In this document: one piece after another, positions 1 through 14,572 of the stretch
Numbering within the stretch: the stretch's first letter is position 1
Layout: each line of letters opens with the position of its first letter
IMG/VR virus record: IMGVR_UViG_3300035070_003112
Location: 1 to 35,234 of that record
Length of the DNA stretch: 35,234 nt
Reading direction: 5' to 3' (one strand)
Source of the DNA: a virus
Position numbers and translations under genes: made by a program
The notes under the pieces: model-generated
The model's database searches: none
What the model was told of the DNA's origin: nothing
Seen by the model: the letters and a program-made list of their open reading frames with translations, nothing else

Positions 1-617
1 TCCTCATCGAGCGCCTCTTGGTGCTTGCCAATATGCCCTTTATGATCTTGAGACTCTTCCACCATCATAAACTGGCCACCAGACAACAACAACGTCTCTA
101 CATCAGCATCCTCTTCAACAAACTCTGCATCTACGCGATTAAGGCCGCCCACATCTACAACATCAGGCACAACGCCTAACTTCTTCACGCCAAAACAAAA
201 ATACGCGTCACGCTGCACCCTTTTATCTTGGTGGCGTTGACGCGTCTCCATCCACAGATCATTAATAAAATCTGCAGCATCGTTCTCTATATCTTGAGGT
301 GATGGCTCGCCGGGTATTAGGTTCTGCTCCTGACTCTTGCCACGTTTCTTCAATACCGCACGAAACTTCGGATCACGTGCATTGCTATTGGCCACGCTCT
401 GATCTATCCATCCAAACACCAACGACGGCTTTGCACGACTGCCCGGGTCCAAAGCTGCATCATCGATCAACTCTTCACGCGTGGTATTTGCTCGATTTTC
501 ATACATAAGACGCAAGCGCACGCCAGCATCTACATACGGCTTCATAAACTTCGTGCTGTAATTAATCTTGCGGAGCCACCACGTAGCCCTATCTTTGTTA
601 TCACTTGGATATGCCAT
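1..617 (-). CDS. Portal protein, N-terminal part (gene crosses the circle joint)
   Basis: This is the first 205 or so codons of the portal gene. ATG is at 617-615, four bases after the terL stop, and the frame stays open to base 1. The sequence then continues in frame in the segment ending at 35157, giving a 656-residue protein. The N terminus begins MAYPSDNKDRATWWLRKI and is followed by a charged helical region. Portal proteins form the dodecameric ring at the capsid vertex through which DNA is packaged and ejected. The assignment rests on position (terS-terL-portal-scaffold-capsid order), on length in the podovirus portal range, and on the acidic and aromatic-rich character of the rest of the protein. 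No short signature motif proves it. It is truncated here only because the linear window cuts the circle. Confidence 0.75.
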   Translation of the reverse strand, partial: MAYPSDNKDRATWWLRKINYSTKFMKPYVDAGVRLRLMYENRANTTREELIDDAALDPGSRAKPSLVFGWIDQSVANSNARDPKFRAVLKKRGKSQEQNLIPGEPSPQDIENDAADFINDLWMETRQRHQDKRVQRDAYFCFGVKKLGVVPDVVDVGGLNRVDAEFVEEDADVETLLLSGGQFMMVEESQDHKGHIGKHQEALDE

Positions 618-620
618 TGT

Positions 621-2066
621 CTACCTATTTGATCTGGCGTAAGGGGCACCCATTATGCTTCGCCTGCCCCTGTTGATGCGTTGCCTGTTCCGTTCAAGAT
701 CCTCAAACGTCAGACCGCGCGGCTTTTCGTCTCGCTTTCTTTCCATCCCACCAATCATCTCACCGAGCATACGGCCAAACAGACTCAACACATCGACTTG
801 GTCATCGTGAGTGCCAGCTGGAAAACGCACCATCTCATCCATTAAGTTATGTGCCCACTGCTTGCCCTTCGGAAAAAACACCTTGCCCATACTCAACCGT
901 GCCTGTATTGCTCTTGCCCTTGTGGCCTTATCAACAGCACTGGCGTATTGCTCACGAACACAATACACACCTTTTTCTCTCATACGTTGCTCAAGGAAAG
1001 GGCCGATGCTTTTTATGATCTGGCCATTTTCTTCTGCCCACTTGCGAGGATTCCACTGCCTCATCATACTAATAGCAATGTTCACCCACTCATCACTGGC
1101 CGTCTGGCCCTTCCACCAATCCAACAGATATATATTGTCTTCATGGTCTACACCTATCACTCCGTGGACCGTATAATCACCGCCGCCATCTGTTACTGCG
1201 TAATCACTGGCACCGTAGATCGCTAACTCATTATATTGTGGCGCTTCATCATACCACTGTATCCACTCACGCTTGAAATAGTCACCCTCATCTGGTGTAG
1301 GTGACTGTTGGTAAAGAGCTGACCACTCTCTGGGCCCTACAGTAGACCGTATCTGCTCCAATGCCTCGATGTTGTACCACTCAGGCCACAAAGGCTTATC
1401 ATCTTCTATCGCCTTTAGCGTGATCACTTCCCACTGATCGCCATCGTGCTCGAGCAAGCGCCCTGCTAAATCATCATCGTGCCATCGCGTCATCACCAAA
1501 ACGACAGCACCACCCGGCATCAATCTTGTAAATGCCGTTGATCGATACCAATCCCAAACCTTCTCGCGGTATATCTCACTGTCGGCATCTTCTCTATTTT
1601 TTACTGGATCATCTATCACCAACAAATGAGCACCACGCCCTGTAATAGATCCACCGACACCAGCTGCGACGTAAGAACCGCCTATATTGGTATTCCATCG
1701 GTGCTTGGCCGTGCTATCAGGTGCCAATGTGACACCGAAAGTGCTCTCAAACTCTGGATCTGATACCAGGTTGCGCACCTCACGCCCAAAATGTGCAGCC
1801 AACTCTTGAGCATATGATGCGCATATAATCTCTTTTTCTGGATGCCTACCGATAAACCACGCAGGGAACTGCATCGATGTTAGTTGACTCTTCCCGTGGC
1901 GTGGTGGCATAAACACCATCAGCCTCTTGCACTCACCATTTGCAACACGCTCTAATGATTCTGCCAAAGTCCTATGATGCTCTGCCACCTGATATGATGG
2001 CATCGTTTGCAGCGTGAAATCAATCAGCGAGATCTTCTTGTTCTGCTTGGGCCTGTCGCTGTGCAC
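621..2066 (-). CDS. terL: Terminase large subunit (packaging ATPase/nuclease)
   Basis: The motor that pumps DNA into the prohead and cuts concatemers. Seen: a Walker A-like PPRHGKS at residues 54-60, a Walker B run LLVIDDP at about 148-154, and a C-terminal nuclease region with YGASDYAVTDGGGDYTV and GTHDDQVDVLSLF, whose aspartates fit the RNase H-like metal site. The open frame extends up to an ATG at 2204, which would overlap terS by 185 bases. I prefer GTG at 2066 (481 aa), because the stretch KISLIDFTLQTMPSYQVAEHH resembles the usual N-terminal region of this family and would be lost if translation began at ATG 2003. No start has a good Shine-Dalgarno, so the start is uncertain. The gene overlaps the end of terS and runs straight into the portal gene. 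Confidence 0.93.
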   Translation of the reverse strand: MHSDRPKQNKKISLIDFTLQTMPSYQVAEHHRTLAESLERVANGECKRLMVFMPPRHGKSQLTSMQFPAWFIGRHPEKEIICASYAQELAAHFGREVRNLVSDPEFESTFGVTLAPDSTAKHRWNTNIGGSYVAAGVGGSITGRGAHLLVIDDPVKNREDADSEIYREKVWDWYRSTAFTRLMPGGAVVLVMTRWHDDDLAGRLLEHDGDQWEVITLKAIEDDKPLWPEWYNIEALEQIRSTVGPREWSALYQQSPTPDEGDYFKREWIQWYDEAPQYNELAIYGASDYAVTDGGGDYTVHGVIGVDHEDNIYLLDWWKGQTASDEWVNIAISMMRQWNPRKWAEENGQIIKSIGPFLEQRMREKGVYCVREQYASAVDKATRARAIQARLSMGKVFFPKGKQWAHNLMDEMVRFPAGTHDDQVDVLSLFGRMLGEMIGGMERKRDEKPRGLTFEDLERNRQRINRGRRSIMGAPYARSNR

Positions 2067-3585: not shown

Positions 3586-3779
3586 TTTATTCCCCTATTC
3601 CAGCTCATAATGAGTAATGGTTTCTTGTCTACGCGATTCTGCACCACCATCACACGCTCATATCTCATTGACTCGATATATTGCACAGCAACTTCTTCGC
3701 ACAAATAGTTCTCGTCAGTATCTTCTGTTTTCCACTCGGCCTTATCGGCAAGGCGCTTGCGTGTGTATAGTGTGAACAT
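3582..3779 (-). CDS. Hypothetical early protein, 65 aa
   Basis: A small acidic-then-basic soluble protein starting MFTLYTRKRLADKAEW. Its ATG overlaps the stop of the cytosine methyltransferase (TGATG). The overlapping second frame of that locus also runs 37 bases into this gene. No family is recognised. The chain of four-base overlaps with its neighbours suggests translational coupling. Confidence 0.6.
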   Translation of the reverse strand: MFTLYTRKRLADKAEWKTEDTDENYLCEEVAVQYIESMRYERVMVVQNRVDKKPLLIMSWNRGIK

Positions 3780-4986
3780 CAGAACCTCTCAGCAAGTTTG
3801 ATAAATGCGTAAGCTGCTTGGACCGGTACAACGCCATTTCCGAGCAATCGCAAGGCATCCCTGCGATGCTCCAAAACTGAGGCCAATTCATCATCCAGTT
3901 CACAAATAGTGGGTTTAACTTCTGGGTTGCTTTGAATGACTTCTGCCCATCCTCTATCGTCGTTTGGAGGTGGTGGGAAAATTCTGATGCTTTTGCTATC
4001 AGATATTTTCGGCCAACCATATGCTTGTAACTCTTGCTCCCTGGTGGACCGACTCCGTGATTGTCGCTTGCCCTCGGAGTCGGCCTGGCCGACTCCGTGA
4101 ATATTTTTGCTTGACCTTGAAGATTCAAGGTCAGCTTGTTCTTGTCTCCCTGTTGGTAGCTGTAATCTCCCGTTGACACTTTTGGAGTCTGCCAAGCAAC
4201 TTGCTCTCGCAAGTTGCTTGGGCGTGTTCTGCCCTCTCTCTGACCACCTGGCCCCATCATCTTTTCCATTGCTTCTTCGCTGCGTTGTGGCAGGTGATCC
4301 ATTGTGTTCGGGGTCGCCCAAAGTTGAGTAGCCACCTGGTCCAGTTGTAAACCGTACTTGGTTCCTGTTGTGTGGCTCCTGTTCTCCCCGTTGGTCAATG
4401 CTCTGGATTTGCCCCTGTCCCCATCTGAACTTTTGGGTGTCGGCCAGGCCGACACCCTTTGCGAGTATAAACAATCGTTTTCTCTGGTGTGTGTTGCCTG
4501 TCTCTGACGCTGTAAACATTCCTGCCTCAACTGCGTAACCCAAATCGTGCAAGTCTCTGACCACTTCGTCGAAGCCAAGACTGAGGTGTCCTGCGACGTT
4601 TTCAAAGAAGCACCAAACAGGTCTGATTGTACCGATGATTCTTTGTATATCTGGCCAAAGGTGCCGTGGGTCATCGCTTCCTCTGCGGTGACCGGCTGCG
4701 GAGAAAGGTTGGCAGGGATAACCACCGGTAAGGATGTCCACTTTTCCGCGCAGATGGTGCCCAACTTCTTTTGCGAATGTCTTAACGTCGCTCCAAATTG
4801 GTGCAGGGGTGATGTGTCCTTCTTCCATTCTTTGAGCAAGTATCGATGCTGCGTAGAGTTCCCTTTCCACGTAGCATTGCGTGATAGTTTCTCCACCATA
4901 GTATTTGATGGCAAGGTCAAGTCCGAGGTCGAGTCCTGCCCCTCCTGAGCAGAGGCTAACCACGTTGTAGGTATATATATCCACAT
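3742..4986 (-). CDS. Overlapping 414-codon frame within the methyltransferase locus
   Basis: A second same-strand frame open for 414 codons, covering all of the cytosine methyltransferase gene and 37 bases beyond. ATG 4986 directly follows the TAG of the upstream gene, with AGGAG about 11 bases before. Unlike an ordinary shadow frame it has phrases I associate with a recurrent phage family: W-x-TP repeats (SAWPTPKSSDGDRG, QLWATPNTMDHLP, VAWQTPKVSTGDY, ARPTPRASDN), RPSNLREQV, and a C-terminal LNPLFVNWMMNWPQFW. These are the same DNA as the LADS phrases of the other frame. Either the locus is doubly coding, or one frame's conservation explains the other. Function is unknown. No other shadow frame in the window approaches this length. 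Confidence 0.45.
   Translation of the reverse strand: MWIYIPTTWLASAQEGQDSTSDLTLPSNTMVEKLSRNATWKGNSTQHRYLLKEWKKDTSPLHQFGATLRHSQKKLGTICAEKWTSLPVVIPANLSPQPVTAEEAMTHGTFGQIYKESSVQSDLFGASLKTSQDTSVLASTKWSETCTIWVTQLRQECLQRQRQATHTRENDCLYSQRVSAWPTPKSSDGDRGKSRALTNGENRSHTTGTKYGLQLDQVATQLWATPNTMDHLPQRSEEAMEKMMGPGGQREGRTRPSNLREQVAWQTPKVSTGDYSYQQGDKNKLTLNLQGQAKIFTESARPTPRASDNHGVGPPGSKSYKHMVGRKYLIAKASEFSHHLQTTIEDGQKSFKATQKLNPLFVNWMMNWPQFWSIAGMPCDCSEMALYRSKQLTHLSNLLRGSDVHTIHTQAPCR
3779..4984 (-). CDS. dcm: DNA (cytosine-5) methyltransferase
   Basis: A C5-MTase with motifs in canonical order: motif I LCSGGAGLD near residue 11, motif IV GYPCQPFSAAG with catalytic Cys at about 91, motif VI FENV at about 127-130, motif VIII QRKRLF at about 167-172, and a C-terminal motif X LLGNGVVPVQAAYAF. 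Between VIII and X lies an unusual target-recognition region with repeated LADT/LADS/ISDSKS phrases. Chosen start: GTG 4984, giving the normal short lead into motif I. A longer frame to 5065 would overlap the upstream gene by 79 bases. Likely modifies phage DNA to escape host restriction. A second frame is open over the entire gene (see 3742-4986), with its ATG two bases before this GTG so that one ribosome site AGGAG serves both. Confidence 0.9.
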   Translation of the reverse strand: MDIYTYNVVSLCSGGAGLDLGLDLAIKYYGGETITQCYVERELYAASILAQRMEEGHITPAPIWSDVKTFAKEVGHHLRGKVDILTGGYPCQPFSAAGHRRGSDDPRHLWPDIQRIIGTIRPVWCFFENVAGHLSLGFDEVVRDLHDLGYAVEAGMFTASETGNTHQRKRLFILAKGVGLADTQKFRWGQGQIQSIDQRGEQEPHNRNQVRFTTGPGGYSTLGDPEHNGSPATTQRRSNGKDDGARWSERGQNTPKQLARASCLADSKSVNGRLQLPTGRQEQADLESSRSSKNIHGVGQADSEGKRQSRSRSTREQELQAYGWPKISDSKSIRIFPPPPNDDRGWAEVIQSNPEVKPTICELDDELASVLEHRRDALRLLGNGVVPVQAAYAFIKLAERF

Positions 4987-5352
4987 CTAAAAAAGTTCTC
5001 CTTGTGCTTGCTTGTGTTTGCGTGCTCGATCGGCATAACTCTGCCGTATCTTTGCCTGTAACCACGCTGGAACCTCCTTCTTTTTTTTGTCCGTCTTCTT
5101 CTCTACACCAGGCAGCGTATCTTGCACCAGCACCGCCATACGCCTACGCACCGGCTGAGTCTTTACGATGTCAGCCAGTTCTGCTCCCAGCTGCACAGCG
5201 TCCAAAATGCTCATCTCTCTTGCAGCGTGCCCACATTGCACACAGTCTGCGACTATATCACTGGACCGGATAAAACCAGACCGCTTATACCTGAGCACTA
5301 TGGGCATCATCTCTTCACATTTATCGCAAAACAGTTTGATCGGATCTTTCAT
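4987..5352 (-). CDS. Zinc-finger protein, 121 aa, upstream of the methyltransferase
   Basis: ATG 5352 follows GGGAGG at good spacing (a GTG at 5355 is possible). The N-terminal half holds C9-x2-C12 (LFCDKCEEMMP) and C37-x2-C40 (DCVQCGH), a zinc ribbon. The C-terminal half is basic with a lysine cluster (KKTDKKKKEVP) and helical, ending KQAQGELF, suggesting nucleic-acid binding. The stop TAG abuts the ATG of the overlapping frame and the GTG of the C5-MTase. A partner role with the methyltransferase is possible from position but not shown. Confidence 0.7.
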   Translation of the reverse strand: MKDPIKLFCDKCEEMMPIVLRYKRSGFIRSSDIVADCVQCGHAAREMSILDAVQLGAELADIVKTQPVRRRMAVLVQDTLPGVEKKTDKKKKEVPAWLQAKIRQSYADRARKHKQAQGELF

Positions 5353-5369
5353 CACATCCTCCCATATAA

Positions 5370-5708
5370 TTACACATCATAATGTGCTACGACAGCATCT
5401 ACAGACTCAAACACAGGTATCTTTAACGATTGAGCTCTGCAAACTTGAACATCAGCGCCAGCACTATCACCTGGTAATCGCAACAAACAATCACACATTG
5501 GCAAAAACGACATATCAATAGCCATCCACTCGTCATAATTTCGAGGTTGATATATATGCAAAAAATGAGACAATAATGGCGTATATGGCGAGATACAATA
5601 ATCCATTAACTTGTGCGCGGCTTCCATTTGCGCACGCACATTTTCAGCACTATCACCTACAGTATACGGCGATGCGATATAACATTTCACAAACCATAAT
5701 GGCATCAC
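5370..5708 (-). CDS. Nucleoside 2-deoxyribosyltransferase-like protein (DUF4406-like)
   Basis: A 112-residue Rossmann-like protein. It opens with a strand and YIASPYT, then a helix NVRAQMEAAHKLMDY, a middle PLLSHFLHIYQPRNYDEWMAIDMSFLPMCD, and a GADVQVCRAQSLKIPVF helix-strand end. This is the layout of the DUF4406/2-deoxyribosyltransferase-like families, in which D and E residues of the middle and GxxxE-type helix act on the N-glycosidic bond of nucleosides. Here the usual E of GxxxE is replaced (GADVQVC), so catalysis is uncertain. Its GTG/ATG start overlaps the preceding gene by four bases. It may take part in nucleotide salvage or base modification beside two methyltransferases. Confidence 0.7.
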   Translation of the reverse strand: MMPLWFVKCYIASPYTVGDSAENVRAQMEAAHKLMDYCISPYTPLLSHFLHIYQPRNYDEWMAIDMSFLPMCDCLLRLPGDSAGADVQVCRAQSLKIPVFESVDAVVAHYDV

Positions 5709-7966
5709 ACCACCTCCGAAAATAGTGTCGGTGTTTCTACAATCTCCTCTGCGCGAGTCAAATTCTGCACCGCAGTATCAAAATACGATCGCTTCAACTC
5801 AATACCTACAAATCGCCGATTCAATTCAATCGACTTGTAGCCTTCAGATCCTATACCAGCAAAAGGTGACAATACCAGATCACCCGGCGCACTCCACAAC
5901 TTAACAGCTCGCTCGATGACGCCCAATTGCAACGGACATAAATGACGCTCATCATCTGTTTCACGGGCCTGCCGAACATTCAGCACATCAGCCTCTTTGA
6001 TGCCACCGGGATAGTCTGGTGTATGTCGATACCATACTGGAGCTGCCCACTCGATCCATTCTTCTTGAGTGATCCATCCCTCGCCATTGCCATACTTCGG
6101 GCTAATACCTGCTTGTATTGGATTGGGATTATCACCTGGTTTGCGAAACTGCAACAAATAATCAGCCAGTGCCATATGCATATGCGAGCTATCATTGGCC
6201 AATGTTTTAAACAACAACCCACGATCCTTTGTCCTGATTGCTTTCAATTGAGGACACTTATCAATGCACACCTCGCCGTAATAAATCCACCCAGCATCTT
6301 GCATTGCCTCGATGGTTTTCCCTCTAAAATCCTTGATCCCTATGTATCCATCTTTACTTTTAAACGCGACTGCTTGAGTCAAATGCATTGCACACGTTCT
6401 GCCTGGCATAGTTACACGTAACAAATCAGACATTAAAAACTTAAAATGATTGATCATCTCATCAAATGACCGTGCATTGCCCATATCACGTGCTGAATTG
6501 GTATACGCATACATCGATGGGAACGGTGGCGAGAATACGCTCAGACCTACACTATCTGTTTCAACTTCTTTAATTCGTTCGCAAGAATCGCCCAGCATTA
6601 AATGCCAGCCATTTCCATATGCATTATCGGTTTGATATGCCATCTCATCTCTCCTTGAATTATCTATTTGAATGTTCAAGCCTCGCATTTCACGAACAAT
6701 AGAGCGTATCATCTCGTTTGATTGCTGTTCTTTGCGCTTTATATTTCGGACAACAGCGCCCTCTGTATCTGCTGTAATGATATACACATCCACATCTGAT
6801 TCTTGACCAAAACGCCAACATCTGCGTATAGCCTGATAAGTCTGCTCAAATGAATCTGACAAACCAACAAACGCGATATTATGGCAGTGTTGCCAGTTCA
6901 TACCAAAACCGCATATAGTAGGCTTACTTATCAACACACGCACATTCCCATTGGTAAAATCCATCAAAGCCTTTTCTTTATGCTCGTTGCTATCAGATCC
7001 TTTCACTTCTACAGCGTCAGGAATAGCACTTTTCAATGATTCTGATTCACTATTGAGATTACACCAAATCAACCACGCATCATTATTGTCATTTACCAAG
7101 TCAGCACAACGAGCCACGCGTTCTTCTTGACTGTCACGTCGAGCATCTCTGCGCTCTTGCAGCGTTTGTGCTTCCATTGGAAATAGAGTCGATAAATTCT
7201 TGCCAGCTACGGTGACAGTCTCTTGTTTGACGTTCAATTTTGGCAACTCGAAACCATCATCAGAAAAACCTAAATCCGATGGCTTTTGCAGAGCCACAGA
7301 CCACGTGGCCATCCAACGCCAAAAGTCCTCACGTGCGTGCCCCTTAAGACGCCATTTGTGTGTCGTGTTACCATCCTGAGTAAAAAACAAAGCCATTATT
7401 TCTTTGCCATTCATTACATCTAAAAACTCAGCGTGATTCGTCAGCTCGATAAGATCATTTGGCGCAGGCGTCGCTGTGCACGCCAGCCGGTAATTGATCT
7501 CCATCGCAAAATCAGTGATTGTCTTTCGGTATTTGCCATCAAACGATTTTAATATGCTCGACTCATCTAACACGATTGCGCCAAAATCACGTGAGTCGTA
7601 ATGATGCAAACGCTCATAGTTTGTCACGTTGATACCTGGCTTAATATCTTGCCCACTCCGGCACAGATTCACAGGGATACCAAACTTATCACCCTCAATC
7701 ACAAACTGCTGGCCAACTGCCAATGGCGTCAGCACTAACACATTGTTATTTGTTTTCCGATATATCTGTGATGCCCACTCCAATGCCATCAATGCCTTAC
7801 CCATACCACAATCAGCAAATATCGCAGCACGGCCGCGTTTTACTGCCCACCGAACAATCTTGCTTTGGAATCTAAACAGTGCTGGATTCACATCCTCATC
7901 ACTTACATCAAAACCTACATCCACTGTTTCTATTCTCTTGCCATCTAAAAACTCTTTATAGTCCAT
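5705..7966 (-). CDS. SNF2-type helicase fused to a DNA N4/N6 methyltransferase
   Basis: 753 residues from ATG 7966, after a purine-rich AGAGAGAC; ATG 7993 has no ribosome site. N-terminal half: superfamily 2 helicase with Walker A-like DCGMGK (about 52-57), LDES box (about 133-136), TATP motif III (about 164-167) and a C-terminal RRCWRFGQ motif VI. From about residue 442: a beta-class amino-methyltransferase with catalytic SPPF (about 479-482) followed much later by the SAM motif SPFAGIGSEGYKS and IELNRRFVGIEL. Order IV then I fits the N4-cytosine/N6-adenine beta group. No nuclease domain is seen, so this is not an obvious restriction enzyme. The combination recalls DarB-type antirestriction proteins of phage P1 (helicase plus methylase), though the order differs. 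A strong internal ribosome site precedes the methyltransferase part. Confidence 0.88.
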   Translation of the reverse strand: MDYKEFLDGKRIETVDVGFDVSDEDVNPALFRFQSKIVRWAVKRGRAAIFADCGMGKALMALEWASQIYRKTNNNVLVLTPLAVGQQFVIEGDKFGIPVNLCRSGQDIKPGINVTNYERLHHYDSRDFGAIVLDESSILKSFDGKYRKTITDFAMEINYRLACTATPAPNDLIELTNHAEFLDVMNGKEIMALFFTQDGNTTHKWRLKGHAREDFWRWMATWSVALQKPSDLGFSDDGFELPKLNVKQETVTVAGKNLSTLFPMEAQTLQERRDARRDSQEERVARCADLVNDNNDAWLIWCNLNSESESLKSAIPDAVEVKGSDSNEHKEKALMDFTNGNVRVLISKPTICGFGMNWQHCHNIAFVGLSDSFEQTYQAIRRCWRFGQESDVDVYIITADTEGAVVRNIKRKEQQSNEMIRSIVREMRGLNIQIDNSRRDEMAYQTDNAYGNGWHLMLGDSCERIKEVETDSVGLSVFSPPFPSMYAYTNSARDMGNARSFDEMINHFKFLMSDLLRVTMPGRTCAMHLTQAVAFKSKDGYIGIKDFRGKTIEAMQDAGWIYYGEVCIDKCPQLKAIRTKDRGLLFKTLANDSSHMHMALADYLLQFRKPGDNPNPIQAGISPKYGNGEGWITQEEWIEWAAPVWYRHTPDYPGGIKEADVLNVRQARETDDERHLCPLQLGVIERAVKLWSAPGDLVLSPFAGIGSEGYKSIELNRRFVGIELKRSYFDTAVQNLTRAEEIVETPTLFSEVV
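6641..6656 (-). promoter_or_regulatory. Internal ribosome binding site and ATG at the methyltransferase domain
   Basis: Within the helicase-methyltransferase gene, AAGGAG (6656-6651) lies seven bases before ATG 6643, in frame. It would start a separate methyltransferase of about 312 residues (MAYQTDNAYGNGWHL...) exactly at the domain border. The spacing is ideal, so both fused and free forms may be made. Confidence 0.6.
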
Positions 7967-7993
7967 CGTCTCTCTCTTCCTCTTAGGGAACAC

Positions 7994-11002: not shown

Positions 11003-11476
11003 TTATTTTCGTAATTTATCAACAGCAGCCATCCCCTGCGCTGCCACATTTGCAAGTCGTTGATAATGTATTTCAATATCATCAAGATCTTGTTCATCCA
11101 CTGTGCCATCAGATACAGCAGCCAAGAACGCTTTTTGTAGATCGCCAGACGCAATGCCAGCTTCCAGAACTTCTACTGATAGCCTTTGGTGATTTTTTAC
11201 TGTCGGTATAATTGTGAAGAGTTCTGGCGGTATGGATGACTGAGCCAGCGATTGAGCACTGGCAGGGTCCTCTTCGTGAATCGCTCGGATTAACTTGGGC
11301 CATTCATCGAGGTGAGGCCGTTCTGCACCGCAGCGATATTTGCGGAGCATTGATGGCGCAATGCCGGTTTCTTCAGCAATCTGTGCTTCTGGCTTCTTGT
11401 TGCGTATTTTGTGTAGTGCGTTCGTAAGTGCAATTTGCGAATCCACGAACATTCCTCCAGTTTTCTCCGTTGTCAT
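11003..11476 (-). CDS. CII/CP76-like HTH regulator
   Basis: 157 residues. The N-terminal third is a helix-turn-helix of the phage regulator type: KIRNKKPEAQIAEETGIAPSMLRKYRCGAERPHLDEW. The rest is acidic and helical and probably mediates oligomerisation. Position (second HTH gene in the leftward early operon, after the Cro-like gene) and architecture resemble CII or CP76-type activators that steer lysogeny and replication. ATG 11476 has GGGCGG upstream. It could equally be a replication-initiation helper; no ATPase or helicase signature is present. Confidence 0.6.
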   Translation of the reverse strand: MTTEKTGGMFVDSQIALTNALHKIRNKKPEAQIAEETGIAPSMLRKYRCGAERPHLDEWPKLIRAIHEEDPASAQSLAQSSIPPELFTIIPTVKNHQRLSVEVLEAGIASGDLQKAFLAAVSDGTVDEQDLDDIEIHYQRLANVAAQGMAAVDKLRK

Positions 11477-11513
11477 CTGCCGCCCATCACGTTAATATTT
11501 GATTGAGAGTTTA

Positions 11514-11569
11514 ACGCTGACCGGGTGACTAATCCCGGTCAGCGTGGCTTGAGTAGGTGCCATCTACTC
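11514..11569 (-). promoter_or_regulatory. Two hairpins in a 121-bp gap
   Basis: A perfect 12-bp stem (11514-11525 with 11534-11545, loop 8) and a neighbouring 6-bp stem (11551-11556 with 11564-11569). No run of U follows on either strand. It lies just upstream of the CII-like gene and could attenuate or terminate the early transcript. No gene is seen in the gap. Confidence 0.5.
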
Positions 11570-11597
11570 AGATGCGTTTTGTGCTATGGGATAGCGT

Positions 11598-11801
11598 TTA
11601 CATCACAAAAGAAGCCAGTTCGTCACGGTCGATTATGGAGCAATATTCTACGTTGGGATTTTCAGCACACCGAGTGGTCCATTTATGAGCCATATGTTGT
11701 GCCACTGGCCGGTGCTTGAGTTTGCCACCTTTGAGCTTGTATTGCAGTATTACGGTGTTGTGAGTGTTTGTGGCCGTGTATATCGCATCGCGTGCAGTCA
11801 T
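11598..11801 (-). CDS. Hypothetical early protein, 67 aa
   Basis: A small basic protein starting MTARDAIYTATNTHNTVIL with its ATG overlapping the upstream stop (ATGA). The middle has several His and Lys residues (KLKHRPVAQHMAHKW). No family is recognised. Followed by the hairpin-containing gap. Confidence 0.6.
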   Translation of the reverse strand: MTARDAIYTATNTHNTVILQYKLKGGKLKHRPVAQHMAHKWTTRCAENPNVEYCSIIDRDELASFVM

Positions 11802-11995
11802 ATTAAGAGTGCCTCCGCTTCATCACGTGGGAACTCACCGGCTTTTGTTTTGGCGATCATCGCCATATTTCGATCAAATCTGGCATCACGTTTGTTTTGT
11901 TTTTTTTCTATCGCATCGATGCCATAGTTGAGCTTAGGGCTTGGCAATGATGCGCCTGGTGCCAACTTCTTAGAACTGCTGAATAGTGCGCCCAT
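11798..11995 (-). CDS. Hypothetical early protein, 65 aa
   Basis: A basic N-terminal part (MGALFSSSKKLAPGASLPSP) and a helical charged C-terminal part (EKKQNKRDARFDRNMAMIAK). It overlaps both neighbours, at its start by one base and at its end by four. It resembles no family I can name. Confidence 0.6.
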   Translation of the reverse strand: MGALFSSSKKLAPGASLPSPKLNYGIDAIEKKQNKRDARFDRNMAMIAKTKAGEFPRDEAEALLI

Positions 11996-12237
11996 TATTT
12001 AACTCCCATTTCGATGATGTCGGCCAGTTGGTATGCCGTCAATGTGTCTGCTTGGTCTTGTGTGATTGAACCGAGAATAATCTGACGGTTGATGAGGTTG
12101 GCTTGGAAAAACTTATCCATAAAAGTTTTGTGAGGGTCACTTGCAAACATCCGCAAGCGTTCTGCATCATCGGTATAATCCTCTGGTGACACCAATGGCA
12201 CCTGACTTTCTGCTTGTGCTTGTGTTGCTGTGTTCAT
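11995..12237 (-). CDS. Hypothetical early protein, 80 aa
   Basis: ATG 12237 has AAAGGGAAGAAT in front. The product is acidic and helical with a C-terminal ITQDQADTLTAYQLADIIEMG, and an internal HKTFMDKFFQANLINRQ helix. The second gene of the leftward early operon after the Cro-like gene. Its function is unknown. Confidence 0.65.
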   Translation of the reverse strand: MNTATQAQAESQVPLVSPEDYTDDAERLRMFASDPHKTFMDKFFQANLINRQIILGSITQDQADTLTAYQLADIIEMGVK

Positions 12238-12277
12238 ATTCTTCCCTTTCTCGCGTGGGTTTTCCTACGTGCGTGAT

Positions 12278-12326
12278 GGTGGTTGCGTTTGCGCTCCGCC
12301 AAGATTGCTACGCAACCACCTTTTTT
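12278..12326 (+). terminator. Inverted repeat with U-tract on the plus strand
   Basis: A perfect 10-bp stem (12278-12287 with 12311-12320, loop 23) followed by TTTTTT at 12321-12326 on the plus strand. Its right arm is the end of the Cro-like gene. No rightward gene ends here, so it would stop antisense RNA, or act on the leftward transcript merely as a hairpin. Confidence 0.4.
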
Positions 12327-12517
12327 ACTGTTTTGTGTGCTAAGTCGTTAAAACTAACTTTCCCACCAGTTGCATTGTGAATACCAATTGCAGCATTCAT
12401 TGATGCTTGGATTTTACCCCGTTTTATATCTGATAAATACGCGTGGCTAATCCCTGCTGCTTTCGCTAAATCGCCACCCTTAATTTTGTATACTTTTATA
12501 TAATCTTCTAACGTCAT
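12308..12517 (-). CDS. Cro-like HTH regulator
   Basis: 69 residues from ATG 12517, preceded by the excellent ribosome site AGGAGGTGG. HTH of the Cro/CI family: GGDLAKAAGISHAYLSDIKRGKI. It is the first gene of the leftward early operon and is divergent to the repressor, the classic Cro place. Its recognition helix (ISHAYLSDI) is nearly identical to that of the repressor (ISHAYYSDI), so the two should read the same operators. Longer frames to 12580 would start upstream of the ribosome site and inside the promoter, so are unlikely. Probably represses lysogenic transcription or balances the switch. Confidence 0.85.
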   Translation of the reverse strand: MTLEDYIKVYKIKGGDLAKAAGISHAYLSDIKRGKIQASMNAAIGIHNATGGKVSFNDLAHKTVKKVVA

Positions 12518-12545
12518 TGGTCTCCACCTCCTTTCCTGTGTTTTT

Positions 12546-12574
12546 AATTTAGTAAATAACTTATACAGTGTCAA
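12546..12574 (-). promoter_or_regulatory. Leftward early promoter
   Basis: TTGACA (12574-12569), 17-base spacer, TAAATT (12551-12546): near-consensus sigma-70 promoter for the Cro-like gene and the early operon. The spacer contains the candidate operator GTAAATAACT (12552-12561), so a bound repressor would block RNA polymerase. Confidence 0.8.
12552..12561. promoter_or_regulatory. Candidate operator in the early promoter
   Basis: GTAAATAACT, an imperfect palindrome core, lies between the -35 and -10 of the leftward promoter. The same 10-mer recurs inverted at 13664-13673 before the integrase gene. Binding by the repressor or Cro-like protein is inferred. Confidence 0.4.
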
Positions 12575-12603
12575 CAACAAATTTTAGATAAAAGTGAAAA
12601 AAA

Positions 12604-12632
12604 TTGATGTGTATTTTCAAAGGCATTATAAT
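12604..12632 (+). promoter_or_regulatory. Repressor promoter, leaderless
   Basis: TTGATG (12604-12609), 17-base spacer, TATAAT (12627-12632). The expected transcription start, about seven bases on, falls at 12639, which is the A of an ATG of the repressor frame. The mRNA would be leaderless, as for lambda cI made from PRM. Confidence 0.7.
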
Positions 12633-12638
12633 ATGATT

Positions 12639-13268
12639 ATGGATATACAATACGACAAGGATAAAGCGGCCAAATTAATCAGGGCTTGGCAAAGCGATGC
12701 AAAGATGCGTGGTGGTGATGTAGCAGATAAAGTGGGCATTTCACATGCGTATTATTCTGACATCCGGAATGCCCACGTAAATGGCAGTATCAAGGTGCTC
12801 ACCAAAATAGCAGATGTGCTGGGCCATAGTTTAAATGAACTGATTGGGATTGAAGCAGCTAAGACGGCTCGACTTGACGAAGCCATAAAGGTTATAGATA
12901 AAAAAAGAGTAGAAATAGACACCCTTTCATTTATTCGAGGCCTATTGGATGAGGAACAATTTGAAAATTTACGAGAATTAACAGATAAGGATTCGCAAGG
13001 ACTCCGCCAGTGGTTGTTATCGTTTATAGAACTATCACCAGACTACAAACGTGTAGTTGAGATATTGATATTTGAACTGTTGCAAGCACAATCACCTAAA
13101 AAGAAGCAAGACTTAATAAAAGAAGAGCGTTCAATCTATGATTCATATACCCGTGACAAACTTGATGAATGGTTTATGGTCGATAAATTCATAGATACCA
13201 CGTATGGGGATAAATCACACGAGGGTGTCAGGAGATTGGATAGGAAGGAAGAAGCGCAGAAAGGATAG
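12639..13268 (+). CDS. HTH repressor of the lysogenic switch
   Basis: 209 residues from ATG 12639, the predicted transcription start. ATG 12633 and GTG 12594 lie in or before the -10 box. N-terminal Cro/CI-type HTH: IRAWQSDAKMRGGDVADKVGISHAYYSDIRNAH, then IKVLTKIADVLGHSLNELIGIEA, typical of the HTH_3 end. The remaining 130 residues are helical and charged (LSFIRGLLDEEQFENLREL, VVEILIFELLQAQSPKKK). I see no S24/LexA-type Ala-Gly cleavage site nor Ser-Lys dyad, so RecA-driven self-cleavage is not expected and induction must work another way. The divergent Cro-like gene and downstream membrane protein and integrase define the lysogeny module. Confidence 0.83.
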   Translation: MDIQYDKDKAAKLIRAWQSDAKMRGGDVADKVGISHAYYSDIRNAHVNGSIKVLTKIADVLGHSLNELIGIEAAKTARLDEAIKVIDKKRVEIDTLSFIRGLLDEEQFENLRELTDKDSQGLRQWLLSFIELSPDYKRVVEILIFELLQAQSPKKKQDLIKEERSIYDSYTRDKLDEWFMVDKFIDTTYGDKSHEGVRRLDRKEEAQKG

Positions 13269-13277
13269 TGGTATTGC

Positions 13278-13451
13278 ATGGAAGCATCACCAGAAACGAT
13301 AGCAGAAATAGAAAGAGGTATTCCTTACTTACAAACAGTTCTCCAGTTGATGATAGTATTGTTGCTTTGGAAGTTAGTAAATACCGTTGTTTGGTTATGT
13401 CAACGACTCGATACAATTTATACATATATAAGAAACAGAGACAATAGATGA
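13278..13451 (+). CDS. Small single-pass membrane protein, 57 aa
   Basis: An ATG nine bases after the repressor stop opens a 57-codon frame on the same strand. Residues about 17-42 form a hydrophobic helix (YLQTVLQLMIVLLLWKLV, then NTVVWLCQ) with an acidic N-terminal end and basic C-terminal tail, so probably N-out/C-in single span. No signal peptide is apparent. Co-transcription with the repressor means it would be made in the lysogen, a typical place for superinfection-exclusion or other prophage-expressed protection proteins; that function is inferred. Its stop codon abuts the tRNA-like segment. Confidence 0.6.
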   Translation: MEASPETIAEIERGIPYLQTVLQLMIVLLLWKLVNTVVWLCQRLDTIYTYIRNRDNR

Positions 13452-13484
13452 GTGGCGCAGCTCGGTAGCGCACTATCTTGGGGT
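13452..13484 (+). pseudogene. tRNA-Pro 5' half (positions 8-38), inverted relative to the attP half
   Basis: Reads as T8 to T38 of a tRNA-Pro(GGG): D-arm GCGC...GCGC with GGTA, then the 5' side of the anticodon stem CTATC, and loop TTGGGGT (13478-13484). The acceptor strand before it does not match (AGATGAG), and the sequence leaves tRNA identity right after the loop. It shares CTTGGGGT with the minus-strand 3' half at 13581-13626, so the two halves meet at the same eight anticodon-loop bases but face each other. Confidence 0.7.
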
Positions 13485-13522
13485 ACCCCGTAGCGACCCC
13501 TATCTTATGCCACAAGTGTAGC

Positions 13523-13573
13523 AAAAAAAAAGCCTTGATTCAATAACCATAACAGGTTAAAAAATCAAGGCTT
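13523..13573 (-). terminator. Intrinsic terminator behind the tRNA-Pro 3' half
   Basis: An 11-bp perfect stem (13530-13540 with 13563-13573, loop 22) followed on the minus strand by a U-run at 13531-13523. It lies seven bases after the CCA end of the tRNA 3' half, so after integration it would terminate the rebuilt host tRNA-Pro transcript. Confidence 0.8.
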
Positions 13574-13580
13574 ATGCTTA

Positions 13581-13626
13581 TGGTCGGAGCGACTGGATTT
13601 GAACCAGCGACCCCTATCACCCCAAG
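13581..13626 (-). other. attP core: 3' 46 bases of a tRNA-Pro(GGG) gene
   Basis: On the minus strand: anticodon loop TTGGGGT, stem GATAG, 5-base variable loop, T arm GCTGG-TTCAAAT-CCAGT, acceptor CGCTCCG, A73 and CCA. All tRNA positions from 31 to 76 are present. Identity to a tRNA starts at the anticodon loop, the usual crossover place of tyrosine integrases, and the integrase gene starts 64 bases away. The phage copy restores the 3' end of the host gene on insertion. Confidence 0.85.
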
Positions 13627-13663
13627 AGCAAAAAAACATACCTAACTTAAGGCGTTGCAATAT

Positions 13664-13673
13664 AGTTATTTAC
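13664..13673. promoter_or_regulatory. Second copy of the candidate operator, before the integrase
   Basis: AGTTATTTAC, the reverse complement of 12552-12561, overlaps a weak -10-like TATAGT (13661-13666) 16 bases before the integrase start. It suggests the switch regulators also control the integrase. Confidence 0.35.
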
Positions 13674-13689
13674 AAAAAAGGCGATCTCA

Positions 13690-14568
13690 GTGGTCACTAT
13701 ACATACCGCAGTTCAGATGTTCATACACGATCGCGTTTTGCGTGGTATGGCAGATGCCACAATAGAGGGCTATGACTCCCTGCTCAATAGGATGGTCGAT
13801 AGCATTGGCAAAGGCGTGTATTTAGAAGATGCTCCAATTTTGGAGTATTGTTATGACCTCGCAAAACGTGGCAATGCAAAATCTACCCTATGGAACTATC
13901 TCAAGCAAATACGTGCGTGGCACTCGTGGTGTGTGGAGAGTGAGTTGTGCAAGCCTATTAACATCCCGAAGATGAAACAGCCCAAGTCACAAATACGGCC
14001 CTTATCAATAAAGCAGGTCCGTGCTGTGATCAACTCGTTTGATACTTCTACATACCTCGGCCTACGCAATCAAATGATGACGCGGATGATGTTTACTATG
14101 GGTTTGCGTGTTGGCGAGTGTATCAGGATGCGCCTGGGTGATGTCGATTTGGCGAACAGAAAAGCGCTCATACGTGGCAAGGGTGACAAAGATGCACTCT
14201 TGCCTATACCCAAAAAAACATCCAAGCACCTATGGGATTACATTGTCTTGCGTGAAGCCAGGACAAATGCGCAGTGTGACCGGGTATTCTTAAATCGCAA
14301 TGGTGAAGCAATGACACGAAACGGTGTCAAGATCGTATTCAACAGGCACCTACAAAAAAAGTTTAAATTTGAAGGTGTGCGATTATCCGCGCACACCTTC
14401 AGGCACTCTTTTGCTGTGGCATTTTTACAGCAAGGTGGTGGCAATGTTTTCGAGCTCCAACAACTGCTGCGCCACGAAGATTTAGATATGACACGTAAAT
14501 ATGTATTTTTAGCACAGGCCGATCTTATGAATGCTATGGATCGATCTGGACCAGACAGCCTGATATAA
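13690..14568 (+). CDS. int: Tyrosine integrase
   Basis: 292 residues with GTG start at 13690 (AAGG eight bases upstream). N-terminal SAM-like core-binding domain (about 1-95), then the catalytic domain with all signature residues: R140 (MGLRVGE), K165 (GKGDK), H235-x2-R238 (HTFRHSF), H262 (LLRHEDLDM) and nucleophile Y271 (TRKYVF). It inserts and excises the phage genome at the tRNA-Pro attP just upstream. Short for a lambda-type integrase and without an obvious extra arm-binding domain, closer to XerC/D-like phage enzymes in size. The only other rightward gene besides the repressor and membrane protein. No excisionase is recognised. Confidence 0.95.
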   Translation: MVTIHTAVQMFIHDRVLRGMADATIEGYDSLLNRMVDSIGKGVYLEDAPILEYCYDLAKRGNAKSTLWNYLKQIRAWHSWCVESELCKPINIPKMKQPKSQIRPLSIKQVRAVINSFDTSTYLGLRNQMMTRMMFTMGLRVGECIRMRLGDVDLANRKALIRGKGDKDALLPIPKKTSKHLWDYIVLREARTNAQCDRVFLNRNGEAMTRNGVKIVFNRHLQKKFKFEGVRLSAHTFRHSFAVAFLQQGGGNVFELQQLLRHEDLDMTRKYVFLAQADLMNAMDRSGPDSLI

Positions 14569-14572
14569 AAAA

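What the first reader, a model, noticed from the sequence alone, without database searches (positions are those of the whole stretch)
13452..13626. attP carries both halves of a tRNA-Pro, facing each other and sharing the eight anticodon-loop bases
The plus strand has tRNA-Pro positions 8-38 (13452-13484); the minus strand has positions 31-76 (13581-13626). Both contain CTTGGGGT, as an inverted pair. Flipping the segment between these two copies would join the halves into one nearly complete tRNA-Pro followed by the intrinsic terminator; in the present orientation the gene is broken. A normal attP has only the 3' part. This could be an integrase-driven invertible segment with crossover in the anticodon loop, a relic of aberrant excision, or an assembly fold-back.
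Basis: partly seen in the sequence, partly recalled or inferred. Interest (0 to 1): 0.75.

Follow-up and report, generated by a model that had tools for sequence, protein, structure and literature searches.

The report
Phage attachment site with both tRNA halves
A circular phage genome carries, beside its integrase gene, the usual back half of a host proline tRNA gene and also, facing it, a trimmed front half of the same gene; the front half is most likely a leftover or spare attachment site rather than a working on/off switch.

Summary
In a circular phage genome (77-bp end repeat), + strand 13452-13484 matches positions 7-38 of a tRNA-Pro(GGG) gene (32/33). Minus strand 13627-13581 is the 3' half of the same gene, identical over 47 nt to complete genes in four MAGs titled Latescibacterota or Gemmatimonadota. 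A third piece, missed before, is a 13-bp copy of the core's right arm (13492-13504). The 3' half, a hairpin with a T-run and an adjacent XerD-like integrase form an ordinary anticodon-loop attP. The 5' half is unusual but has precedent. The two closest integrases found here (about 31% identical, L059 and L061) sit beside attPs carrying only the 5' half of this tRNA, and host-phylum genomes hold both 5' and 3' fragments of the gene. I read the window as a working 3'-type attP plus an inverted, non-restoring 5'-type half-site, a relic or an accessory integrase-binding unit. The invertible-switch reading is weak. The acceptor 5' strand is missing, because the fragment starts right after a stop codon. 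Flipping leaves 3 of 7 acceptor pairs. The shared repeat is 9 bp, and no contig shows the other orientation. Reads were not available. New variant of a known kind, moderate interest.

The parts
13278..13451 (+). small ORF (57 aa, one hydrophobic stretch); its TGA stop (13449-13451) directly precedes the tRNA 5' fragment and occupies the place of the acceptor 5' strand
   Evidence: no PHROG or Pfam match
13452..13484 (+). 5' fragment of tRNA-Pro(GGG), positions 7-38: D arm, anticodon-stem 5' strand, complete anticodon loop TTGGGGT; no acceptor 5' strand and no predicted promoter
   Evidence: 32/33 to complete tRNA-Pro(GGG) genes; shuffles reach at most 22/33; no promoter-like site on +
13492..13504 (-). 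extra copy of the core's right arm, GATAGGGGTCGCT (tRNA positions 39-51), inverted relative to the 5' fragment
   Evidence: similar inverted copy downstream of the 5' half in L059 (0 of 1000 shuffles) and weakly in L061
13523..13573 (-). imperfect 19-bp inverted repeat followed on the minus strand by nine T: probable terminator supplied by the phage for the reconstituted tRNA gene
   Evidence: (I1, 84% complementary) and direct reading; the strict terminator scan did not call it
13581..13627 (-). attP core: 3' half of tRNA-Pro(GGG), from the anticodon loop to the CCA end; the likely working attachment core
   Evidence: 47/47 identical to tRNA-Pro(GGG) in L004, L009, L010 and L012; same kind of 3' half in PaV-LD and about 16 viral contigs
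13690..14568 (+). tyrosine integrase, 292 aa, XerD-like two-domain type with no arm-binding domain
   Evidence: PF00589 5.1e-26; phrog_1; PDB profile match to XerD 1a0p over residues 18-272
12594..13268 (+). HTH_3 (repressor-like) protein on the other side of attP

Best explanation
This is a composite attachment site. The working attP is the minus-strand core next to the integrase. Recombination with the host tRNA-Pro(GGG) at the anticodon loop would join host positions 1-38 to phage positions 39-76 and give an intact tRNA followed by the phage's own hairpin. About 134 bp away and facing it lies a second half-site of the opposite polarity: the tRNA 5' half (7-38) ending exactly at the loop, followed by an inverted copy of the right arm. 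Related integrases use 5'-half attPs of this same tRNA. The second half-site is therefore most likely a remnant, possibly still binding integrase, of a 5'-type attP or of an integrase-made host/phage junction trapped in the phage. The lineage then changed to the 3' polarity. It no longer restores a tRNA, because the acceptor 5' strand is replaced by the end of an ORF. Shown: the sequences, their identity to one tRNA, the circular genome, the closest integrases found having 5'-type sites, and both polarities of fragment in host-phylum genomes. Inferred: which core is used, crossover in the loop, the order of events, and that integrase binds the repeats.
For: The 3' half is 47/47 identical to real tRNA-Pro(GGG) genes, CCA included, and lies by a tyrosine integrase with a hairpin and T-run downstream, the same layout as PaV-LD and its relatives. 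The 5' half ends exactly at the 3' border of the anticodon loop, and the 3' half starts at its 5' border, as expected of integrase-made boundaries. The two best integrase relatives seen (150 and 149 bits, against about 110 bits for the best in 50,697 phage records) have attPs with the 5' half of the same tRNA (same CTATC stem and CTCGGTA loop) between int and the repressor gene. An inverted right-arm copy follows the 5' half in the window and in L059 (0 of 1000 shuffles each; weak in L061). In the 64 genomes of the host-candidate phylum, 3' fragments (L075-L077) and a 5' fragment (L074) of this tRNA both occur, and a TerL 60% identical to the window's is present. 5'-type islands are rare but established (PMC4383910; PMC8371274).
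Against: The window's integrase is only about 31% identical to those of L059 and L061, so shared ancestry of the site is not proven. In L059 and L061 the 5' half points away from the integrase; in the window it points towards it. The D arm and loop are nearly perfect while the acceptor is wholly gone, which looks like truncation or retention rather than slow decay. No intermediate phage was found. L029, the nearest relative by capsid, lacks the whole lysogeny module.
Confidence: 0.55

Rival explanations
1. Accessory integrase-binding sites: the three direct copies of AGCG(N2-5)CTATC (13467, 13492, 13606) are integrase-binding sites of a simple, Xer-like integrase that lacks an arm-binding domain. 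The 5' half and the extra arm are a required part of attP, for example for synapsis or directionality.
For: The motif occurs only three times in the genome, all in attP and all in one orientation. The integrase is a two-domain XerD-like protein. An inverted right-arm copy also follows the 5' half in L059.
Against: A binding site does not explain the 16-18 nt of D arm beyond the arm that also match the tRNA. The spacing of the extra arm differs: 7 nt after the loop in the window, about 48 in L059. The 3'-type phages inspected have no 5'-half-like sequence within 1 kb.
Confidence: 0.2
2. Invertible segment: integrase recombines the two inverted anticodon-loop copies and flips 13485-13618, in the phage or in the lysogen. 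In a lysogen this would split or rejoin the host tRNA-Pro(GGG), a tRNA on/off switch.
For: Inverted TCTTGGGGT pair with an integrase gene next to it. ARAGORN calls a tRNA-Pro(ggg) in the flipped stretch. In a predicted lysogen the inverted repeat grows to 33 bp. A tyrosine integrase (pTN3) inverts between inverted tRNA sites in vitro, and HK022 Int inverts between attP and a secondary site (PMC5495485).
Against: With the true acceptor 5' strand missing only 3 of 7 pairs form; the ARAGORN call shifts the acceptor into the D arm. The right arm at the 5' copy is replaced by ACCCCGT. No other contig with either half exact was found. Only one orientation is known.
Confidence: 0.12
3. Chance capture of a host tRNA fragment by illegitimate recombination or template switching during aberrant excision, unrelated to integrase polarity and without function.
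For: The left end (position 7, after a stop codon) is not an integrase boundary. A short perfect palindrome GGGGTACCCC sits at the junction, as template switching can leave.
Against: The other end lies exactly at the loop border used by integrases. The nearest integrases found use 5'-half sites of this very tRNA.
Confidence: 0.1
4. Assembly or amplification artefact (fold-back chimera).
For: Single metagenome contig; reads not available; no second contig with the same arrangement.
Against: The genome closes with a 77-bp repeat. The structural genes on both sides are syntenic with L029, whose homologous segments flank the window's lysogeny module. The piece is 33 bp inserted in otherwise normal sequence, whereas a fold-back would invert everything beyond it.
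Confidence: 0.03

Closest known systems
Anticodon-loop tRNA attP with 3' fragment (the common class; here Planktothrix phage PaV-LD and about 16 IMG/VR relatives at tRNA-Pro(GGG))
   Same: 3' half from the loop to the tRNA end next to an integrase; hairpin with T-run downstream; same tRNA and same crossover region
   Different: none of those inspected has a 5' half or extra arm copy within 1 kb; PaV-LD integrase is only about 21% identical over part of its length
5'-fragment islands (159 of 3919 in Islander) and pTN3-like integrases whose attB is the 5' half of a tRNA gene; here L059 and L061
   Same: a tRNA 5' half ending at the anticodon loop inside the element; L059 and L061 use the same tRNA-Pro(GGG) and have the closest integrases found
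   Different: the window's 5' half lacks positions 1-6 and a promoter, so it cannot restore a tRNA; it is inverted and accompanied by a complete 3' half
Integrase-mediated inversion between inverted att sites (pTN3 Int in vitro; HK022 attP with a secondary site)
   Same: two inverted att-like sites and a tyrosine recombinase
   Different: no evidence of a second orientation; one of the two sites is only a half-site

Membership tests
tRNA-gene attP, 3'-fragment, anticodon-loop class | fragment identical to the host tRNA from the loop to its 3' end | tested here: met
   47/47 to complete tRNA-Pro(GGG) genes
tRNA-gene attP, 3'-fragment, anticodon-loop class | tyrosine integrase gene adjacent | tested here: met
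   integrase at 13690-14568, about 62 bp away
tRNA-gene attP, 3'-fragment, anticodon-loop class | integration restores an intact tRNA | not testable with these tools
   predicted from sequence only; no lysogen of this phage found
5'-fragment attP | fragment reaches position 1 so that integration restores the tRNA | tested here: not met
   match starts at position 7; acceptor 5' strand AGATGAG instead of CGGAGCG
5'-fragment attP | fragment ends at the anticodon loop | tested here: met
   identity ends at TTGGGGT (13484)
5'-fragment attP | promoter upstream of the fragment | tested here: inconclusive
   no sigma-70-like site on + near it; simple consensus scan only, and the host's promoters are unknown
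integrase-driven invertible segment | inverted recombination sites flanking the segment | tested here: inconclusive
   9-bp identical overlap; one site lacks its right arm, the other its tRNA left arm
integrase-driven invertible segment | both orientations occur | not testable with these tools
   no reads; no other contig carries either half exactly
integrase-driven invertible segment | flip creates a functional product | tested here: not met
   acceptor stem 3 of 7 pairs after the flip, 7 of 7 in the host gene

The most novel reading that the evidence does not exclude
A phage carrying two half-sites of opposite polarity for one tRNA, whose integrase can flip the segment between them. In a lysogen this would toggle the host tRNA-Pro(GGG) gene between intact and split; over evolution it would let the phage change which half of the tRNA it carries.
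Probability: 0.1. Interest if true: 0.75.

Novelty: new variant of a known kind. Interest (0 to 1): 0.42.

Why it matters
Elements in tRNA genes nearly always carry the 3' half; 5'-half elements are rare, and how one polarity turns into the other is unknown. A phage carrying both half-sites of one tRNA, with related integrases in 5'-type phages and 3'-type fragments in the same candidate host phylum, is a plausible snapshot of such a change and makes the question testable. The same tRNA-Pro(GGG) also appears to be a hot spot used from both sides in a little-studied bacterial phylum.

Tried and rejected
No Rfam RNA family was credible; the best were sub-threshold matches to antisense RNAs or the tRNA 3' half. 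The local RNA around the 5' half folds no better than shuffles (z -0.18). The low energy of the whole att region (z -3.6) includes the long hairpin at 13530-13573 and the 9-bp pairing of the two loops. A lysogen-only 33-bp hairpin in a read-through transcript is predicted but is a trivial consequence of the inverted repeat, and nothing shows that it acts. A split (trans-spliced) tRNA was rejected because the acceptor 5' strand is missing. Exact searches for either half in viral contigs gave nothing. Integrase searches in viral contigs gave nothing for the window protein alone, and only L059 and L061 with an alignment. The closest relative by capsid (L029, 85% identical) lacks repressor, attP and integrase. 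Host-candidate genomes gave only weak (25-31% identity) integrase hits. The PaV-LD match first suggested a cyanobacterial host; the encoded CCA and the exact 3'-half match point instead to the Latescibacterota-like group. The AlphaFold model of the integrase had low confidence in the catalytic domain (mean pLDDT 56) and was not used for fold search.

Full report
1. The observation. The window is an IMG/VR virus record whose two ends share a 77-bp direct repeat, so it is a closed circle of about 35,157 bp. It is syntenic with another viral contig (L029, re-fetched whole as L046-L047) over most structural genes. On the + strand, 13452-13484 reads GTGGCGCAGCTCGGTAGCGCACTATCTTGGGGT, positions 7-38 of tRNA-Pro(GGG). 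It matches a complete gene at 32 of 33 bases; 200 shuffles reach at most 22. On the minus strand, 13627-13581 reads TCTTGGGGTGATAGGGGTCGCTGGTTCAAATCCAGTCGCTCCGACCA, identical over 47 nt to complete tRNA-Pro(GGG) genes in four MAG contigs titled Latescibacterota or Gemmatimonadota. The two halves share TCTTGGGGT as an inverted pair.

2. A third tRNA-derived piece, AGCGACCCCTATC (13492-13504), is a perfect copy of 13606-13618, the right arm of the core. AGCG(N2-5)CTATC occurs only three times in the genome, all in this region and in one orientation. The 5' fragment starts directly after the TGA of a 57-residue ORF (13278-13451), so tRNA positions 1-6 are not merely mutated: ORF sequence stands in their place.

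3. The ordinary part. The 3' half, a hairpin with a T-run on the tRNA strand (13523-13573) and a tyrosine integrase (13690-14568) form a standard anticodon-loop attP. Planktothrix phage PaV-LD and about 16 viral contigs have the same layout at tRNA-Pro(GGG), none with a 5'-half-like sequence within 1 kb. The integrase is a two-domain XerD-like protein: its profile matches XerD (1a0p) over residues 18-272, so it has no arm-binding domain.

4. The unusual part has relatives. A search for the tRNA-Pro(GGG) 5' half in viral contigs found 15. Several are complete tRNA genes, but L053, L056, L059 and L061 stop being tRNA at the loop. L059 and L061 carry the whole 5' half (1-38 plus GAT), with the same D loop and anticodon stem as the window, between integrase and repressor genes. 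Because the integrase lies upstream of the 5' half and phage genes downstream, this is attP itself and not a host junction. Their integrases are the closest found to the window's: 31% identity, 149-150 bits, against about 110 bits for the best of 50,697 phage records. Downstream of the 5' half, on the opposite strand, both the window and L059 have a copy of the right arm that 1000 shuffles never match; L061 has a weaker one. In L059 the copy overlaps a possible terminator stem, so its meaning there is uncertain.

5. The host side. Among 64 genomes of the phylum of L010 there are complete tRNA-Pro(GGG) genes, isolated 3' halves (L075, identical to the window's; L076, L077) and an isolated 5' half (L074). 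One of these genomes holds a terminase 60% identical to the window's, on a 5.6-kb contig. The host is therefore probably in this group (inference), and its tRNA-Pro(GGG) seems to be used by elements of both polarities.

6. How it works. Most likely only the integrase-proximal 3' core is used: integration joins host 1-38 to phage 39-76 and the phage provides a terminator. The inverted 5' half-site cannot restore a tRNA. It ends at the loop border, as an integrase product does, and so is best read as what remains of a 5'-type attP or of a trapped host/phage junction, perhaps still binding integrase. The event that placed the two facing each other cannot be reconstructed from one genome; an integrase-driven inversion in the past is possible.

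7. The switch idea. Flipping 13485-13618 makes ARAGORN report a tRNA-Pro(ggg), but with an acceptor shifted into the D arm; the real acceptor would form 3 of 7 pairs. Tyrosine integrases can invert between inverted tRNA sites (pTN3, PMC5495485), so the chemistry is possible. In a lysogen the inverted repeat would grow from 9 to 33 bp. No second orientation has been seen, and reads are needed.

8. Comparison with what is known. Islander lists 3760 islands with 3' and 159 with 5' tDNA fragments (PMC4383910). pTN3-like integrases use 5' halves, a situation described as seldom met in bacteria (PMC8371274). I found no paper reporting both halves of one tRNA, facing each other, in one element, but the open library searched is limited. 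Verdict: a real composite attP, a new variant of a known kind, moderately interesting.

Noticed in passing
window 3742-4986 (-) and 3779-5065 (-): Two long ORFs (414 and 428 aa) overlap almost completely in different frames and both match phage protein families: the 428-aa one is a C5 cytosine methyltransferase (phrog_363), the 414-aa one matches phrog_1008 and phrog_27243. L059 has the same kind of pair (120-932 and 182-691, minus strand). Possibly a nearly nested gene pair.
   Followed up: partly
window 5705-7993 (-): A 762-aa protein joins an SNF2-type helicase and an N6/N4 DNA methyltransferase domain; a long ORF lies in the aligned place in the relative L046 (1580-3928).
   Followed up: no
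L046 8204-9336 compared with window 11473-14572: The nearest relative by capsid protein lacks the whole repressor-attP-integrase module, so a temperate and an apparently module-less phage share one backbone.
   Followed up: partly
L059 4119-4157 (-), L061 1797-1838 (+): Phages with a 5'-half tRNA-Pro(GGG) attP, a class described as rare in bacteria.
   Followed up: yes
L053 1769-1804, L056 215-253: Two more viral contigs where a tRNA-Pro(GGG) 5' half stops at the anticodon loop; L053 has an integrase about 550 bp downstream.
   Followed up: partly
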